In this document: positions 8,925 through 61,400 of the stretch, in pieces
How positions within the stretch are numbered: the first letter of the stretch is position 1
Layout: each line of letters starts with the position of its first letter
NCBI GenBank assembly: GCA_963854735.1
Contig: OY978099.1
Span: 558,001 to 622,000 of the forward strand
Reading direction: 5' to 3'
Source of the DNA: Marvania coccoides
Taxonomy: Eukaryota > Chlorophyta > Trebouxiophyceae > Chlorellales > Chlorellaceae
DNA length: 64,000 bases
Made by a program: the position numbers and the translations under genes
The notes under the pieces: model-generated
What the model was told of the DNA's origin: nothing
Database searches by the model: none
Seen by the model: the letters and a program-made list of their open reading frames with translations, nothing else

Positions 8925-8929
8925 AAAAA
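8925..8929 (-). terminator. RNA polymerase III terminator (T5)
   Basis: Five T residues on the minus strand lie seven bases past the end of the tRNA-Tyr 5' half. They would end the precursor just beyond the last tRNA base, which supports the permuted order as the real transcription unit. Confidence 0.7.
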
Positions 8930-8936
8930 TAAACTG

Positions 8937-9017
8937 TTACAGTCTACCGCTCTACCAACTGAGCTACCGGGAGTTTTGGGTTCTCCCGACCCGGATTTGA
9001 ACGGGGGACCTATAGAT
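8937..9017 (-). tRNA. Circularly permuted tRNA-Tyr (GUA): 3' half precedes 5' half
   Basis: On the minus strand the 3' half (9017-8982, tRNA positions 38-73) comes first, then an 8-nt linker (ACCCAAAA, 8981-8974), then the 5' half (8973-8937, positions 1-37). Rejoined, they give a 73-nt cloverleaf. The acceptor arms CTCCCGG and TCGGGAG pair at all seven positions (one G-U). The D arm is GCTC-AGTTGGTA-GAGC. The anticodon stem is GTAGA/TCTAT around the loop CTGTAAA, and the variable loop is AGGTC. The T loop TTCAAAT sits on a stem with one C-C mismatch (52:62), and position 73 is A. C1-G72 and anticodon GUA are tyrosine identity features. The anticodon segment GTAAC (8940-8936) can pair with GTTAC in the leader (9026-9022), making a bulge-helix-bulge-like substrate for the splicing endonuclease. 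A T5 run follows. No conventional 3' half lies downstream of the 5' half. Confidence 0.9.
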
Positions 9018-9321
9018 ACATGTAACCTCGGTGTGAGCGAAGTTGACGATCACTTGTGACTTCTGAACGAAACATATAACCATCTTTTGATGGAAAGAAA
9101 AGAAATCTGTCCAATTATGAAAAATAAAGTCAAGGATTTTCTTTCAATGTCAGATTCGGAGTTTTCGGACTCAATTTTTAGTGCCCTCAAAACCCCGCAT
9201 TTTCGCTCCACGCCCACCTCGACGCAAAATCCGCATGCTTTCTTACCACAGGGCAGCTCCCTCAAACACGCCCCTGGATACAATATTTTTAATTCTCAAT
9301 ATTTATACGTACGCCGAGAAG

Positions 9322-12077: not shown

Positions 12078-14726
12078 TCACTTGTAGTTGTTGAAATAGC
12101 GCATGGTAACGGGCACGTAGCTCAGCCCCACCTCCTCAAACAGCTCCGTCTCATTCTCCAGCGGCAGCGGCGGTCCCATGGGCCCGCTGTCGTGCCTGTC
12201 CCCGCTCCTGAACCTCTTGGCCCTGGGCACCATCTCCTGGTCTGATATTTTGTAGCCGGTGGCAGCGGGGTAGCCCCGCTTCTTCACCGCCTCCTTGGCC
12301 GCCTGCAAAGAGAAGAAGAAAACAAACGCTGCCGCTCAACGGCCTTGCATAAAACATAAAATAAGGCCGTCCTCCCCCTGGGAACTCTTCATCGAGCTTA
12401 AGCATCCGCAAGGGTACATTGGGCATATGCAATAAAATAAAATTTCTGTTTGTTCCGCTCCCCCGAGGCCCATTCACGCAAATCCAATTTTCTCCACTCA
12501 CTTTTGAGGTGTTGGCCCAGTGCCGCGTGGCCCTGCAGAAGGCCATGGAGTTGGCAAAGTAGTTGAGGGCGCACGCGGCGTGCTGCCAGCGGTACACCTT
12601 CAGATCAAAGCGGCGGTGAACAGACTTGCCAGGCAGCCGGCACAGCCCCATCCAGGACGCTTTGCTGTCGTGGTTGGGACCGCCCAGACGGTCGGGCGTG
12701 AACTCCTCGCTGGCGCCCATTTCGTCGGCCAGCAGCCCCCGGCGGCGCAGCAGATCGCTGCGCAGGCGGTGCAGAAACTCGCCGCAGTGCTGGTGGGCCA
12801 GGCTGGGGGGCAGCACCACCAGAATGTCAATGTCGGAGCTGGTGGGGGAGCCGCGGGAGTAGGAGCCTGCTGCGAATGCGTAGGTCCGTTCGGGGTCGGT
12901 GGCGCCCAGTCTTTCCACCACCTCAAAGATGGCTTCCCGCGCAATCGCCTCTGCCTGCGCGACCTCCTCGCGCGGGATGCGCTGCGCAAAGTCCTCCGCG
13001 TACCGAACGCCCACGTCCTGCAAATTTGAACGATGAAAAGGTGTGAGAGAGCGTCGCGACACGTCTGAAAGAAAAAATAAAATAAAATAACGAGCTTTAA
13101 ACTGTTCTTTCTTTCTCATTTTCTCCTTTTATAAACTGAGATTCATGCTCTCAATTTGAAATCGCCAGCTCACCTGCTGCGTGGAGAGCTGCAGCTCGCC
13201 GCTGGCGGCCTTGCGCCGCACGTCCTCCAACGAGCGGTTCCCCTTCTGCCACCACTCGTCCACCACGGTCGCCCCCGCCCCCCACACCCCCTGAAACACG
13301 GTTTTGGCTGCCACATCCTCCCTCTCAGAAACCGCCGCCAGCCGGGAAGAGTAGCCCTGCCGCAGCAGCTCCTTCACCTTCTCAGCCGACTTTTTCCCGA
13401 GCCTGGGCACTGCGTCCACATCTTCGTCGGTGTCCAGCGCGTGGGGGTAGTTGACGAGGGTGCGGACGGCCCGCTCAATAGCCTGCGTGGGCGGTCCAAA
13501 AAAAATTAGGAGAAAAAAATGTGTATTGCTAACACAGAAGAAGTACATATATATATATATATACCAAAAAATCATGCGACCTATGTGTCTCAGCAGCAGA
13601 AGCAGCAGAGCAGCAGCAGCCCAAAAAGAAAGAAAGAAACGGAGCTGCAAAGCGACATCATCAAACTTCTCTTCCATGGCTTTCAACCAACCACGCCAGC
13701 ATTTCAACCAAACGCACCTTGATCTTAAACTGGTCCCGCCCAGGCGTGTAGATTCCCTCCTTCACCTCCTCCAGCCCCTTTGCGAGGCAAAAGCTCCGCG
13801 CCGCGCACGCAGCGTGCTGGCACACCTCGTTGCTCACCTTTGCGGGGCCTTGTTTGCCGGGAGAGTCCGCCCCCGCCACCCCCGTTTTGAACCAATGGTT
13901 TGCCAGCCTGTTGACGGTGTCCCTCGCCTCATCCTCATCAAAGGGCTCTGCAAACACGCCAAAGGAGCCCCATGGGATGCCGGTGTGGCCGCCTGTGAAC
14001 GTCGGCTTGCGTCCGCTGCAGTAAAGACCGATGTTGAGTATGAGTGCATGGTGCATAAGCGAAAGTGTGAAGGGAAACTCGGTAATGAAATTCAAATACG
14101 CACCGCACTGCAACCCACTCGCTGCCCCGCCGTTCCACCTGGCAAGGCTCCGCATCGGCGCCTCGTTCCGCATCGCTTTCCTCCCTCTCCTCCTGAGAAG
14201 TAGCCCCGCCATTGCGGAGAACAGGCGGGGGGCTCTCTGCAGCAGCAGCAGGCAGCCTCGACACCCGGGAGTTCGGGTGCTTTGCAGCTGCAAACGGGGG
14301 CGTGCGGACGTCAGGTGGCACGCTGTTGGGTGTTTGCGTCTTAGGACGTTTTGACGGCGGCGAAACAGCTGCTGCTGCTGCTGGTGCAGCTGCTTCCTCC
14401 ACCTTGGGGCGGAACGCCGCAGGGTCCGCCAAGGCGCCTTTGATGATGCTGGAGACCACAAAGTCTTGGGTGACGAGGTGGAATCTGCTGAGTGGGAAAA
14501 CCGAAGGCACGGCCGCTGCAAGTTTAGCCATTGTAACGCTCTTGGGACACACGATGTGGGTGGTTGAGAGCTCCACGCTCTCTTGAATAGTACCCCCAAA
14601 CTCTTTGGCAATCTGATGCTTCATCCGCGAATGGTGTCGAAGTTCGGAAATAAAATAAAAACGCAAATTGTGAAATAGGAAGCCCAGGGGTTTCCCACCC
14701 CCGTTGGGGTCTGCTGTGCGGCTCAT
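12078..14726 (-). CDS. Family X DNA polymerase with BRCT domain (Pol lambda-like)
   Basis: Translation probably starts at 14726 (MSRTADPNGGG); an in-frame ATG also exists at 14816. Five exons encode, in order, an N-terminal BRCT-like domain (HIVCPKSVTMAKL) and an Ala/Pro/Ser-rich linker. The polymerase core follows, with the helix-hairpin-helix VPRLGKKSAEKVKELL, the GVWGAG-TV..W segment, and the palm motif GSYSRGSPTSSDIDILV, whose two Asp bind metal. The third Asp lies in RRFDLKVYRW. The tail VGLSYVPV matches the Pol lambda/beta C terminus. Family members fill gaps in base-excision repair and non-homologous end joining in the nucleus. Intron 4 (about 12303-12500) carries dispersed repeat copy D. 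All donors are GT. Confidence 0.88.
12366..12436 (+). repeat. Dispersed element, copy D, inside a DNA polymerase intron
   Basis: This shorter copy has the same end blocks (GTCCTCCCCCTGGGAACTCTT and ACATTGGGCATATGCAATAA) around GAGCTTAAGCATCC. Flanking ATAAAATAA sequences on both sides may be a remnant duplication, but the region is A-rich, so this is weak. The element is antisense to the host gene. Confidence 0.65.
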
Positions 14727-55313: not shown

Positions 55314-57035
55314 TCAACTTTTCTTAAATGGCGTCACGCCGTGGCCCAGCGGCCCGCCCTTCAGCCCCGTGGCATGTTCGTACGCCGCAGCCACCTCCGC
55401 CACGTACCCGTCCGTCCACGCCGGCGCCAGCATGGTGATGCCAAACGGCATCTCGATCGATGGCTTCCCGGTAGCTTCCAGGTGGGGCGCCCGCTCCGTT
55501 CCCTCCCCTGCAGCCTCGATCTTCATCACCGAGCTGGGGACCGATACCCCGCACATCTCCAGCAGGTTCACAAAGTTGGTGAACCTCCCCAGGTTGGCGT
55601 TTCTCGACAGCATGCGGATGTCGTTAAGGATATTTGGGTCCACGTCTTCCTCCTCCGTCCCGATTTCTGCCACGGTGTACACGTACGCGGTGGTGGGCAC
55701 CACCAGGATGTCGATCTTCGCGAGCTGCAGCCGCGCGGCCGCGCGCAGGTGGCCCAGCGACTGCAGCCCTTTGAACACGTCAGCAGCATTCCACTTTTTG
55801 GTGTTGGCGATGATCAGCCGGGTGACCTTCAGGATGCGCTCGTCGTTGGAGATGTCCGCCAGCTCCGGGGACTGAATGTCCGGGACGGCAGCTTCCAGGA
55901 AGCTGCGGATGCCGGAGTAGCGCTCGGCGATGAACGCACCGCCGTACAGCAGCACCGCCGTCTCTGCAAAGGGCGTGAAGTCGAATGAGGTCACCCGCTC
56001 CCCGCCAATCGTCTCCAGCCGCGCGATCGCGTCCGCCATCGCCAACTCCATCGCCATCTTCATTTTGTCGCCCCCCGGCCCCCCGCCGAACCCCCAAAAC
56101 TCAGCCCCCGGCACCGCGAATTTGAACTTCTCCCGCCAGCCGAGGGTCTTGGCCACCAGCTCCACCCGCGCGGGGCGCCAGGTGGGGTCCCCCACGTCCG
56201 TGGAGTTGTCCAGAATCGCCCTCACCACGATGCCGTCTTCAACCGACAGGACAAACACCGAAGGGCAGTCAAGGGTGGCGCAGGCGGGCACCACACCGAT
56301 GGTGGACCACCTTCCCACCGAGGGCTTGATCCCCACGATGCCGTTAAGCCCGGCAGGCACGCGCCCGGAGCCCGCGGTGTCAGTTCCAAGGGCGAAGGTG
56401 ACCATGCCTTCTGCCACGGCCACTGCTGAGCCGGAAGACGAGCCGCCAGGGGAGAAGCGGTGGTCGAAAGAGTTGGCGGGGGTGCCGTAGGGGGAGCGCG
56501 TGCCTACCAGACCCGCAGCAAACTGGTCCATGTTGGTTTTGCCCTGAAAAATCATAAAATATAAGAGCGGTTTTCATTATTAAAAAAATACAATTATAGT
56601 ACTGGATTTATACGATTTTTTCGCGGTCTGTTGAATTTGTAACATGAAATGCGTCTAAGTAATGTATATACGCGTTAAGCAGCTCACCAAGCAGACTCCT
56701 CCGGCCTTGATGATCTCAGCCACGATCAGTGCATGGCGGTCGGGGATGTAAGAAAATCCGGGGCAGGCGCAGGTGGTGGGGAACCCAGCGACGTCAATGT
56801 TGTCCTTCACGGCAAAAGGCACGCCCCAGAGGGGTCCACGCGCAAAGGGCGGCAGCTTTTCGAGCTCTGCGCAGCGCTGTATGATCTTGGCGGCGGCGGG
56901 CTTGGTGATGAACACGGCATCGGAAGCCTCGATCTTTTCGAGCAGGGCCGTGCACAGCGATGTGGGGGTGAATTTGCCGGAGGAGTAAGCCGCACGGAGG
57001 GCCGTGAGCGTCAAGTCCTCAGTGGTGACCTCCAT
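55314..57035 (-). CDS. Allophanate hydrolase, amidase domain only
   Basis: Exons 57035-56688 and 56543-55314 give 525 residues. Amidase-signature motifs are intact: the catalytic Lys in FAVKDNIDVAG, the Ser-rich loop in SPGGSSSGSAVAVAEG, and the nucleophile loop in GTDTAGSGRVPAG. LNGIVGIKPSVGRWST and the later NLGRFTNFVNLLEMCGVSVP are typical of allophanate hydrolase rather than of other amidases. The enzyme splits allophanate from urea carboxylase to ammonia and CO2. It stops just where the family's usual C-terminal domain (about 150 residues) would begin; that domain is encoded by the divergent gene 362 bp upstream. No organelle presequence is obvious. Confidence 0.92.
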
Positions 57036-57397
57036 ATTTTAACTTTAGGGCAACCTGCAGGGAGACGAGACACGCAGCACGGTTCAGCTATCGGTCAGAT
57101 CATCGACAAGGAATTTTTAATGCTTAAAACCATAAGATGGGTGTCTGCAGTCAGCAGTGACCAACCCCACCCTCGCCGGAAAACAATGTCATGAAGCAGA
57201 TTTAATTGTGCTGCCAGGCTTCCCCTCCCTGGTGCTCACCTTGAAAAAATAATCCACCAATGATTTGGCATGAAACCAGTTGAATTGAGCTTTAAATTCT
57301 CGCACGAAAACACGTGCATAGCACGAGTGAGTCGTCAAATGCGACTCCAACAGAGCACTCCACGGCTTATTTTTCATTTCTAAAATTTGTTTAATAC
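57036..57397. promoter_or_regulatory. Shared divergent promoter region of the split allophanate hydrolase genes
   Basis: 362 bp lie between the start codons of the amidase gene (minus) and the C-terminal-domain gene (plus). Both promoters must be here or overlap the first exons. The arrangement would allow joint regulation, for example by nitrogen source. I cannot identify a binding site with confidence. Confidence 0.5.
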
Positions 57398-57785
57398 ATG
57401 AAGAGGGCAATGTTTCGGCTGGCGGTGTGCGGCCTGCACCTGAAAGGATACCCTCTCAACTGGCAGCTCACCGATCTCTCTGCCACGTTTGTGCAAACCT
57501 GCAAGAGCGCTCCTGTTTACAAGTGAGTTTTGATCAACTATATTTTTTTTCTTGCTCAGCGCAGGAGTGCAGGACCTCAGGAAGGCTGACGCCGCTCACC
57601 GCTGCTCACTGCCTGCCGCAGGTTGATAGCTTTCACTGATGCGTCCGGCAAAACCAAGCCCGGAATGATTCGCCCCCTGAGCCCCGCCGGCTGCGGCGCC
57701 GTGGAGCTCGAGGTCTGGGAGCTTCCCATTGAAAATTTCGGCAAGTTCATGCTTCAGGTGAGACATGGTTTTGTGTCAATGATTT

Positions 57786-57818
<33 letters not shown>

Positions 57819-58029
57819 CTCTGCTTACCCTCAATTTCTATTCCAGGTTCCTGCCCCTCTGGGCATTGGTACTGTGGATCTGGAGGATGGAACTCAGGTC
57901 AAGGGCTTCATTTGCGAGGCGTGGGTGGCAGAAAAGGTTGCTGCCGGGAACGACAGCAACTACGAAGATATCACCGCTCTAGGGGGGTGGAAGGCATATA
58001 TTGAAAAGAAAAATGCTGCATCGACATGA
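57398..58029 (+). CDS. Stand-alone allophanate hydrolase C-terminal domain protein
   Basis: Exons 57398-57522, 57622-57757 and 57847-58029 give 147 residues. The sequence matches the C-terminal domain of bacterial and fungal allophanate hydrolase from end to end: FRLAVCGLHLKGYPLNWQLT, KLIAFTDASGKTKPGMIRP, VELEVWELPIENFGKFML, VPAPLGIGTVDLEDGTQVKG and EDITALGGWKAYIEK. In fused enzymes this domain processes N-carboxycarbamate, the product of the amidase step, releasing CO2. Here it is its own gene, divergent from the amidase gene and convergent with urea carboxylase. It probably acts with the amidase in trans. Intron 2 contains a T homopolymer of about 28 (57788-57815). All splice sites are GT-AG and in phase. 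Confidence 0.92.
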
Positions 58030-58465
58030 TATATATTTAAAGACGAAGAATTGCTATTTCATAATTAAATTAAAAAATTTGTCCCACTTGCAATCATTAC
58101 TTTATCCCCACACCAAGTAGAGTACAAAGATATTAGCGCTTTCCTGCTTTCTCTCTCAGGCGTGGCGGTTCGCTGCATATATTACATACACACTAGTGTT
58201 ATCTAAGTAATTATTAGTTCCCACTGTCACCTGCCACCGCCATTATTGGCCAGCCAGTTCAAGGCCAGCCTCTCATGCAATTGGGCAGTGAAGAATACGA
58301 TGGGCAATGGGGTAAAAGGGTTACGTACCAAGCCATTCAACGAATAGTTCAAATAGCAAATATATAATATCAGAATAAGAAAAAGCAGTACAGAAGAAGA
58401 AACTGAAAGTTCAAATCCATTTATCGCATGTTTTTCATGCAGCACGCGTCATTAGGCGACGCACG
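58030..58465. other. Convergent 3' spacer
   Basis: About 435 bp between the C-terminal-domain gene and urea carboxylase. A GTTCAAATCC at about 58408 resembles a tRNA B box, but no other tRNA parts accompany it. Confidence 0.4.
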
Positions 58466-61400
58466 CTAAACTGCTTCGACCAGGCACAGCGAGGCGCCCT
58501 GCTGCACCATGTCACCACTGGTCACTGCGATGTCTGCCACCCGTCCAGCCACAGTAGCCACCACGGCGTATTCCATCTTCATGGCCTCCAGCACCAGTAG
58601 AACATCACCCACCGACACCTCCTGGCCAACCTCAGCCCGCAGCTCCCACACGGTGCCGGTGACGGCGGCGCGAATCGCGGCCCCTTCCCGGCCCTCGTAC
58701 GGGTCGCTGCCGTCGCCCCCAGCCATGCTGCCCATGGAGGACGCCGGCGCCAGCGACGCCTTGGAGTCGATGCGCGCCAGCTGCTCCGCGTCGATCTTCT
58801 GCTGCTCCGCCATTGCAATCTTCTGCTTGGCCTTCATCACAGCCACCTCGTCGGCGCAGGCGGCGCACATCGCGTTGTACTCCGCCATATCCAGCGTCTC
58901 GTGGTCGATCTTGATCTCGAGCCGCCCGTTGCGGAAGTCGGTGCGCATGGCGTCGAGCTCGTCCTCGGTGACCTGGAAGTATCGAACTTGGTCAAAGTTG
59001 CGCAGCAGCCAAGGCTTGCCCTTCTCAAAGGGACCCGCACGGGTGAAGGAGTTCCAAATGGGGAGGGTGCGGCCGATGAGCTGGTATCCACCTGGGCTGT
59101 CCATGCCTGCAAGTGTTTTAATAATTAAAAAAACAGTTGGTCAAGTATAATTGCGTGTGTTTATTTTAATGAAGAGAATGAAGATTGAGCGACGCACCGT
59201 AGATGCACATGTAGCACCCGCCAATGCCCACCGCGCCCTCGGGGGTGTAGGTACGAGCAGGGTTGTACTTTGGCACGACCATTCTGTGGCGAGGGTCCAC
59301 CGGGACAGCGCAGGGGGCGCCCAGATAGACGTCGCCCAGGCCCATCACCATGTAGGAGGCCTCGAACACCACCTTGCGCACCTCGTCGGTGGGGTCTCCC
59401 TCCATGCCGTTGTTGGCGGCGATGAAGTCGATGTTGGAGGGCAGGTAGGGCGCCTCGGGGCGAACCTGTGCAGTTAGAAAGGAAAAACAATGTTAGGAAA
59501 TGAATGGATGGTACCATTATAATTTAATATTTAGAGTAAAATCATGTCCCCCAACACTGAAGAAACTCCCCGAAAATCTGCCAGCATTTCTGCAAATTAT
59601 GCCATAACCCCCTCTAATAAAATATCTCATTACTTACCGAGCGGGTGTACTTCTCGATGGCCTCGCGGTTCCACTTGTCGTTGAACGCCATGGGGAGGTG
59701 GACGATGCGGGTAGGCAGCTTCACCTCAGCAGCCGGCACCATCTCCGCCTCCGCCTTCTGGATCAGCTCAATCAGCGACGACAGCGGCAGCACGCGTTGG
59801 TCGTACTCAATCACCACAGAGCGCACGCCAGGGGAAGTTTCGATGAGGCCCGGCACCGCCGCGGCAGCCAGCCAAGCCTGCACCTGGCTCACGCGCACGC
59901 GCAGGTTGAGATCCAGCTCCATGGGGCCGTACTCCAAGAACACGTAGCGGTCTCCCGCCAGGCGGAGCTGCGCTCCAGGATGAGAATCAGAAGCAGGCAG
60001 CGTCCACAGCACGGCGTTGGTTTCAGGGCAGGGGGGCAGCTCGGGAGAGAATCCAGCCAGAGTGGCCTCCGTGGAATCGACAGTGGCCTCCCCTCGGGCC
60101 ATACCCTTCACCAGCTCGACCATTTTATCGACGGTGAGTCGGGCGGCAACAGCGGTTTCCACGGTGACCTTTCTGAACTGCACGCCGTCTCCAGGGCGCA
60201 GCTGCCCCATCTTCCACAGCTCGGTGGTGAGAATGGTCACGGGACACACAAACCCGCCCAGGGAAGGGCCATCCACCATCAACACCACTGGCATATCTCC
60301 GGTGAAGTTCACAGCGCCGATGGGGTATACGTGATCGTGGACATTGGAAGGGTGGGAGCCGCCCTCGCCACCGTCGGCGCGCGCAAACTGGGGGCGGGGA
60401 CCCTCCAGGCGGATGCCCAGCCTGTTGGAATTGTGGTGCACCTTGAAAGTAGTCTCGAAGAAAGTGGTGACGTCCTCAGGGGTGAAGTAGTCAGGGTCAG
60501 CCTGGGGGCCAGGCAGCACGCCCACCTGCCAGGGGGTGTCTGCGGGGGGTGGCGACGGGCGCCAGGCGGCGGGGAGCGACGCTCCCACCGCCAGCGCTGC
60601 CTGGTCAGACGGCCCCATGGGCAGCATGTCGCCGGCGCGCAGGGCGCGGCCCTGGTGGCCGCCCATGTTGCCGCCGGGGAAGGTGGACTTGGATCCGAGG
60701 TAGGAGGGGACGTCCAGACCGCCGGAGATGGCGATGTAGCCGCGAGCGCCGCCGGCAGTGGCACCAACTTGAACGACTTGGCCGGTTTCCACCTTGAAGG
60801 AGGTGAACTGGGGGATGGTGGCGCCATCCACGGTGACGGCAGCCTCCGCGCCGGTGACTGCCACGACGGCAGGGGCGAGGAATTTGAGGGTGGGGCCGTT
60901 GAGCGTGACCTCCAGCGCGGCTGCGTCATCGTCGTTGCCCACCAGCGCGTTGGCCAGGCGGTGGGAGAGGTCGTCCATGGGTCCAGAGGGAGGCACACCC
61001 ACGTTCCACCTGCGGTAGCATATGAAAAAAAGAAAGAGGTTTAAGAAAGGGGAGGGGAGTCAGCGCAAGAAAGAAAAAAAGTCAGCAGCTAGTACATTTT
61101 TTCTCCATCTAACCGATATTTATTTGAGGGTGAAATTTATTCAACAAGTTCAGAGCATTTCTTACATGGCAACGCGGCCGGGGTAGTCCTGCACAGTGGT
61201 CATCAGCCCTGGGTCCAGCACCTCGACGCTGTGGGCCACGTACTGGAAGCTCTCGAGGAACTTTGTGGTGGTGGCGCCCGCGGCATACCCAGGGTGCGCC
61301 ACGATCTCCTTGCACAGCTCCAGGTTGGTGACCACGCCGCGCAGCACGGTGCCCTCCAGCGCGGTCTGCATGGAGGCAGTGGCGGCAATGCGGTCAGCGC

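What the first reader, a model, noticed from the sequence alone, without database searches (positions are those of the whole stretch)
8925..9030. Circularly permuted tRNA-Tyr(GUA) gene
On the minus strand the tRNA 3' half lies upstream of its 5' half, separated by 8 nt. All cloverleaf arms form after rejoining (acceptor 7/7 pairs, one T-stem mismatch), with Tyr identity features C1-G72 and GUA. The leader GTTAC pairs with the anticodon segment GTAAC to form a bulge-helix-bulge-like site at the join (37/38). A T5 Pol III terminator follows the 5' half directly. Permuted tRNA genes are known from the red alga Cyanidioschyzon and some green-algal lineages, so the class is known but rare. The precursor would have to be circularised by splicing, then cut at the linker by tRNase Z and RNase P.
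Basis: partly seen in the sequence, partly recalled or inferred. Interest (0 to 1): 0.95.

Follow-up and report, generated by a model that had tools for sequence, protein, structure and literature searches.

The report
Circularly permuted tyrosine tRNA gene
A green alga carries a tyrosine tRNA gene back to front, with the second half before the first, and at least fourteen other tRNA genes found in its nucleus are scrambled the same way, so it probably has to make many of its tRNAs by way of small RNA circles.

Summary
On the minus strand, 9017-8982 (tRNA positions 38-73), an 8-nt linker, then 8973-8937 (positions 1-37) rejoin into a tRNA-Tyr(GUA) that ARAGORN accepts; the unrearranged window yields no tRNA. 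Scaffold lengths identify the genome as Marvania coccoides CCAP 251/1B, a trebouxiophyte green alga. A DNA search of the assembly with the rejoined sequence finds only this locus, so it is probably the only cytosolic tRNA-Tyr gene.

It is not alone. All 86 nuclear matches of one B-box pattern were read: 14 are further clean permuted genes with the same junction, 10 are colinear. In all I found 15 permuted and 13 colinear nuclear genes; the census is incomplete. Leaders pair with the anticodon loop in the splice-site register (40 of 60 positions, shuffled mean 30.1), and 15 of 15 are followed by a T-run. Splicing endonuclease, RtcB, PRORP and tRNase Z genes are present.

The class is known; a 2014 table lists no eukaryotic permuted Tyr gene and at most 11 permuted genes per genome. 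No RNA evidence was available.

The parts
9018..9031 (-). Leader ending CCGAGGTTACATGT; its GTTACA pairs with U33-A37 plus the first trailer base (relaxed bulge-helix-bulge)
8982..9017 (-). 3' half of tRNA-Tyr: A38, anticodon-stem 3' strand, variable loop, T arm (B box CGTTCAAATCC), acceptor 3' strand, A73
8974..8981 (-). 8-nt linker ACCCAAAA between acceptor 3' and 5' strands
8937..8973 (-). 5' half of tRNA-Tyr: C1 to A37, with A box TAGCTCAGTTGG and anticodon GTA
8925..8936 (-). Trailer CAGTTTATTTTT with a T5 run (Pol III terminator-like) starting 7 nt after A37

Best explanation
A functional nuclear circularly permuted tRNA-Tyr(GUA) gene of type II (junction 37/38) in Marvania coccoides, probably the only source of cytosolic tRNA-Tyr. 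Shown from sequence: the swapped halves, the complete cloverleaf after rejoining, the leader/anticodon-loop helix, the T-run, and the lack of another copy in the searches made. Inferred: Pol III transcribes leader-3'half-linker-5'half-trailer; the termini fold back on the anticodon stem as a relaxed bulge-helix-bulge; the TSEN endonuclease cuts after A37 and before A38; RtcB joins the ends into an 81-nt circle; PRORP and tRNase Z cut out the 8-nt linker; CCA is added. The same design recurs in 14 other genes of this nucleus, so the pathway is probably a main route of tRNA maturation here.
For: Rejoined sequence called tRNA-Tyr(gta); no tRNA in the unrearranged window. Only these two halves match in the assembly. 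14 further clean permuted genes with the same junction: Gly GCC, Leu CAG, Thr CGT, Thr TGT, Glu CTC, Arg TCG, Arg CCT, Arg CCG, Arg TCT, Ser GCT, Asn GTT, Phe GAA, Ala CGC, Ile AAT; ARAGORN accepts 15 of 15 once rejoined, with the expected anticodon. Pairing of positions 32-35 with leader -3 to -6: 40 of 60, shuffled-leader mean 30.1, sd 2.8, fraction reaching it 0.0004, best of 8 registers tried. T-run of 4 or more within 25 nt after position 37 in 15 of 15, background 11%. Machinery: two matches to the endonuclease catalytic domain, one Sen54 N-terminal domain, RtcB, PRORP, tRNase Z domain.
Against: No RNA data. T stem has a C.C mismatch. Register 4 in this gene lacks the 32 pair (C.U); in the set, Ser GCT and Asn GTT make only 1 of 4 pairs and Arg TCG and Ile AAT 2 of 4. 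The junction could be cut one base later, leaving C38 instead of A38: ARAGORN accepts both. The Thr TGT gene has a T4 inside its linker, which might terminate transcription. One place on C13 with one mismatch to a Tyr-like 5'-half pattern could not be read (the reversed control pattern gave 7 hits).
Confidence: 0.88

Rival explanations
1. Same gene, different order: PRORP and tRNase Z cut the linker first, leaving two half-molecules held by the acceptor stem and junction helix, which the endonuclease and ligase then join; no circle accumulates.
For: The acceptor/T domain is intact in the linear precursor (7/7 and 4/5 pairs), which is what both enzymes recognise according to the review (section read); the 8-nt linker is short.
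Against: [quoted passage not shown]
Confidence: 0.15
2. A silent or decayed relic, tyrosine being decoded by another tRNA.
For: T-stem mismatch; no expression data.
Against: No other nuclear Tyr gene; no decay in the acceptor, D or anticodon arms; junction helix and T-run kept. The assembly is reported 98.3% BUSCO-complete at QV 66.5.
Confidence: 0.05
3. Chance or assembly artefact: unrelated tRNA halves brought together.
For: The scanner can build hits of up to 20 from neighbouring ordinary organelle genes.
Against: The two halves pair with each other in acceptor and anticodon stems; no shuffled window reaches 21; 15 separate loci share the design; HiFi coverage is reported as 1,105-fold.
Confidence: 0.02

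Closest known systems
[quoted passage not shown] 2010, recalled; seen through the table and passages of PMC3978253)
   Same: Green-algal nuclear genes, 3' half upstream, junction at 37/38, hBH-type motif; linkers listed for type II in these algae 11-64 bp
   Different: Those are Ser, Leu, Cys, iMet, Arg, Asn; 3 to 6 genes per genome. Here Tyr, linker 8, and 15 clean genes found
Permuted tRNA genes of Auxenochlorella UTEX 250-A (PMC12636532 / PMC12633428; passages only)
   Same: Also Trebouxiophyceae; authors report that tRNAscan-SE gave an incomplete set and that permuted genes filled it
   Different: Their list is in Supplementary Fig. S1, which I could not see; it may hold a Tyr gene and a similar number
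Cyanidioschyzon merolae permuted genes (PMC3978253 table and passages)
   Same: Many permuted genes in one nucleus (11), circular intermediate shown there
   Different: Junctions at several positions and atypical introns; here all 15 clean genes have 37/38. No Tyr among the 11
Thermofilum pendens permuted tRNA-Tyr(GTA) (PMC3978253 table)
   Same: Same anticodon, permuted
   Different: Archaeal, type IV junction 59/60, linker 1 nt, extra intron

Membership tests
Circularly permuted tRNA gene | 3' half lies upstream of 5' half on one strand with a short linker | tested here: met
Circularly permuted tRNA gene | Halves rejoin to a full cloverleaf | tested here: met
   T stem 4/5
Circularly permuted tRNA gene | Termini can form a bulge-helix-bulge or relaxed form at the junction | tested here: met
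   33-35 paired in register, continuing to the first trailer base; pair 32 absent. Group test 40 of 60 against 30.1
Circularly permuted tRNA gene | Transcribed; circular intermediate; mature CCA-tailed tRNA | not testable with these tools
   no RNA data at hand
Type II permuted (junction 37/38) | Cut between 37 and 38 | tested here: inconclusive
   register 33 to -4 enriched when 37/38 is assumed, but a cut one base later also gives an acceptable Tyr
Ordinary intron-containing tRNA-Tyr | 5' exon upstream of 3' exon | tested here: not met
   order reversed; each half found once in the genome search
Split (trans-spliced) tRNA | Halves at separate loci | tested here: not met
   halves 8 nt apart

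The most novel reading that the evidence does not exclude
In this alga permuted genes are the majority form of nuclear tRNA genes, so RNA circularisation is the default and essential way of making cytosolic tRNA, including the only tRNA for tyrosine, and the tRNA genes are transcribed with the B box ahead of the A box.
Probability: 0.55. Interest if true: 0.75.

Novelty: new member of a known kind. Interest (0 to 1): 0.6.

Why it matters
Permuted tRNA genes have been treated as rare oddities (34 listed in 2014). A small, chromosome-level green-algal genome with at least 15, tyrosine apparently dependent on one of them, makes open questions testable: whether the circular route is essential, how Pol III reads a gene whose internal boxes are in reverse order, whether RtcB (found here) does the circularisation, and how permutation arises, since one gene is partly duplicated in tandem and another has a second 5' half. 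It also shows why standard tRNA searches under-count in such genomes: RF00005 finds 9 nuclear genes here.

Tried and rejected
Considered and rejected: ordinary intron-containing gene, split gene, chance juxtaposition, relic (see rivals). PF08303 (fungal-type tRNA ligase kinase domain) gave no match, but no control genome rang, so it says nothing. Upstream 80 nt of the 15 genes were printed and looked at by eye; no promoter motif analysis was run. Two permuted-like loci, L043 and L087, have T arm, 7-pair acceptor and A-box-like 5' segment in swapped order but no clean anticodon arm that I could fit; they are not counted. Results against: the first B-box pattern is not enriched over its reversed control (132 against 212), and 59 of its 86 nuclear matches show no tRNA by my scans; the scanner yields hits of 17-20 on organelle and shuffled sequence.

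Full report
What is there. The minus strand reads leader, 3' half (9017-8982), 8-nt linker (8981-8974), 5' half (8973-8937), trailer with T5. Rejoined at 37/38 it is tRNA-Tyr(GUA) to ARAGORN, with C1-G72 (recalled as a eukaryotic/archaeal Tyr identity pair). The free energy fold of the rejoined 73-mer by ViennaRNA is not a cloverleaf (-25.8 kcal/mol, an alternative fold); that is common for unmodified tRNA sequences (recalled) but is a result against. ARAGORN finds no tRNA in the window as it stands and Rfam nothing at gathering score.

Whose genome. G000 has 22,462,713 bases in 15 contigs. C1 is 3,401,833, C5 1,767,042 and C11 998,802 bases, equal to the longest scaffold, N50 and N90 given for Marvania coccoides ucMarCocc1.1; C14 (49,038) and C15 (99,873) equal its mitochondrial and plastid lengths of 49.04 and 99.87 kb (part 1 of 4 of PMC11833223 read). 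Marvania is in Trebouxiophyceae, Chlorellales.

Is it the only Tyr gene? RF00005 over the genome: 62 matches, 53 on C14/C15 and 9 nuclear; the nine are Val TAC, Gln CTG, Met CAT, Gly TCC, Glu TTC, Asp GTC, and with introns Cys GCA, Lys CTT, Thr AGT. RF00005 misses some intron-bearing genes (four more turned up), so it alone cannot exclude another Tyr. The DNA search with the rejoined 73-mer returns only positions 1-37 and 38-73 of this locus (the tool warns that a missing match is no proof of rarity). A pattern for the D-stem/anticodon stretch, one mismatch allowed, gives three places: this locus, the plastid tRNA-Phe, and C13:370269, which I could not read (reversed control 7). The mitochondrion has its own Tyr gene with a long variable arm (L002). 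Of the plastid I fetched 50,000 of 99,873 bases.

How many more. The pattern GGTTCRANYCC has 132 matches (reversed control 212); the first 100 are listed, 86 of them on C1-C13, which is all nuclear ones because the list is in contig order. I read all 86. By my scanner, ARAGORN and eye: 14 clean permuted genes (L026, L031, L033, L036, L044, L045, L054, L065, L070, L077, L090, L098, L099, L102), 2 unresolved permuted-like (L043, L087), 4 colinear without intron (Val, Met, Glu, Asp), 6 colinear with intron (Cys, Lys, L057, L082 Arg ACG, L088, L092), 1 truncated Lys copy (L083) and 59 without a tRNA. ARAGORN labels L057 Thr(tgt), L088 Gly(ccc) and L092 Ser(tga); by eye the first two look like Ser with long variable arms, and I do not trust the labels. 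Adding Gln, Gly TCC and Thr AGT (other B box) gives 13 colinear; adding this Tyr (B box CGTTC) gives 15 permuted. A second pattern, RGRYCNNNNGTTCRANNC, has 51 places (control 61), 44 nuclear, 25 unread. So the census is incomplete both ways, and 'more permuted than colinear' rests on 14 against 10 in the fully read sample.

Are they real as a set? All 15 score 21 or more; 30 shuffled windows give none at 21 or more and organelle loci at most 20. All 15 rejoin into tRNAs with the stated anticodons in ARAGORN. T-runs of 4 or more within 25 nt after position 37: 15 of 15, background 11.2%. Within the body 14 of 15 have no T4; the Thr TGT linker has one. Pairing of 32-35 to leader -3 to -6 (the register expected for a bulge-helix-bulge at 37/38, recalled and worked out by hand): 40 of 60, shuffled mean 30.1, sd 2.82, fraction 0.0004; the next best of the 8 registers is one base along, 35 of 60, fraction 0.056. 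I had already seen registers 3-7. 11 of 15 genes have 3 or 4 of the 4 pairs; this gene has 3 and continues through A37 to the first trailer base.

Machinery. Endonuclease catalytic domain at two places, Sen54 N-terminal domain once, RtcB once in three exon-like pieces, PRORP once, tRNase Z domain once over the cut-off and once below. PF08303 none, uninformative. That RtcB rather than a plant-type ligase joins the ends is therefore inference.

Mechanism. As in the model for algal permuted genes (PMC3978253, sections 6 and 8 read): endonuclease cut at the junction, ligation to a circle (here 36 + 8 + 37 = 81 nt), removal of the linker, CCA addition. Every step is inferred for this gene.

Known and new. 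The 2014 table (passages) lists 34 genes, 11 at most in one genome, Tyr only in Thermofilum pendens with a 59/60 junction. Amorphochlora nucleomorph adds two Ser genes (passage). Permuted genes in Auxenochlorella, also Trebouxiophyceae, are stated in one sentence with a supplementary figure that I could not see (passages), so a Tyr gene there is possible. Searches for 'permuted tRNA' (45 papers, 40 listed), with 'Trebouxiophyceae', with 'Chlorella', with 'bulge-helix-bulge' and 'alga' from 2015, and for 'Marvania coccoides' (5 papers, listing) showed no report for Marvania; the library lacks most subscription journals. Linker of the Gly GCC gene, 85 nt, is longer than the 74 given as the longest in 2014.

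Origin. Leu CAG (L031) is followed by a truncated 3' half and a second identical 5' half; Ala CGC (L077) has a second identical 5' half 61 bp downstream, each with its own T-run. The review mentions an extra 5' half after the Cys gene of O. lucimarinus (passage). This fits origin through tandem duplication but does not prove it.

Noticed in passing
L031 1530-1673: Permuted tRNA-Leu(CAG) is followed by a partial tandem copy: a truncated 3' half (1606-1626) and a second, identical 5' half (1637-1673) with its own T-run.
   Followed up: partly
L077 667-763: Permuted tRNA-Ala(CGC) has a second identical 5' half 61 bp downstream, also followed by a T-run.
   Followed up: partly
L033 481-457, minus strand: A lone 5'-half-like stretch with anticodon CGT and a T-run, about 1 kb from the permuted Thr(CGT) gene; no matching 3' half seen in the 300 bases printed.
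   Followed up: no
L043 around 1440-1600; L087 minus strand around 634: T arm, 7-pair acceptor and A-box-like 5' segment in swapped order, but no clean anticodon arm; may have an extra intron, another junction, or be decayed.
   Followed up: partly
L083 compared with L023: A 5'-truncated second copy of the intron-containing Lys(CTT) gene, about 5 kb away on C8 in opposite orientation, with intron and 3' exon nearly identical.
   Followed up: no
window 12151-13119 minus: ORF with a DNA polymerase beta palm domain (Pol X family) about 3 kb from the tRNA gene.
   Followed up: no
window 55314-61002 minus: Amidase and carboxyltransferase domains in one region, as in a urea amidolyase (reading recalled).
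   Followed up: no
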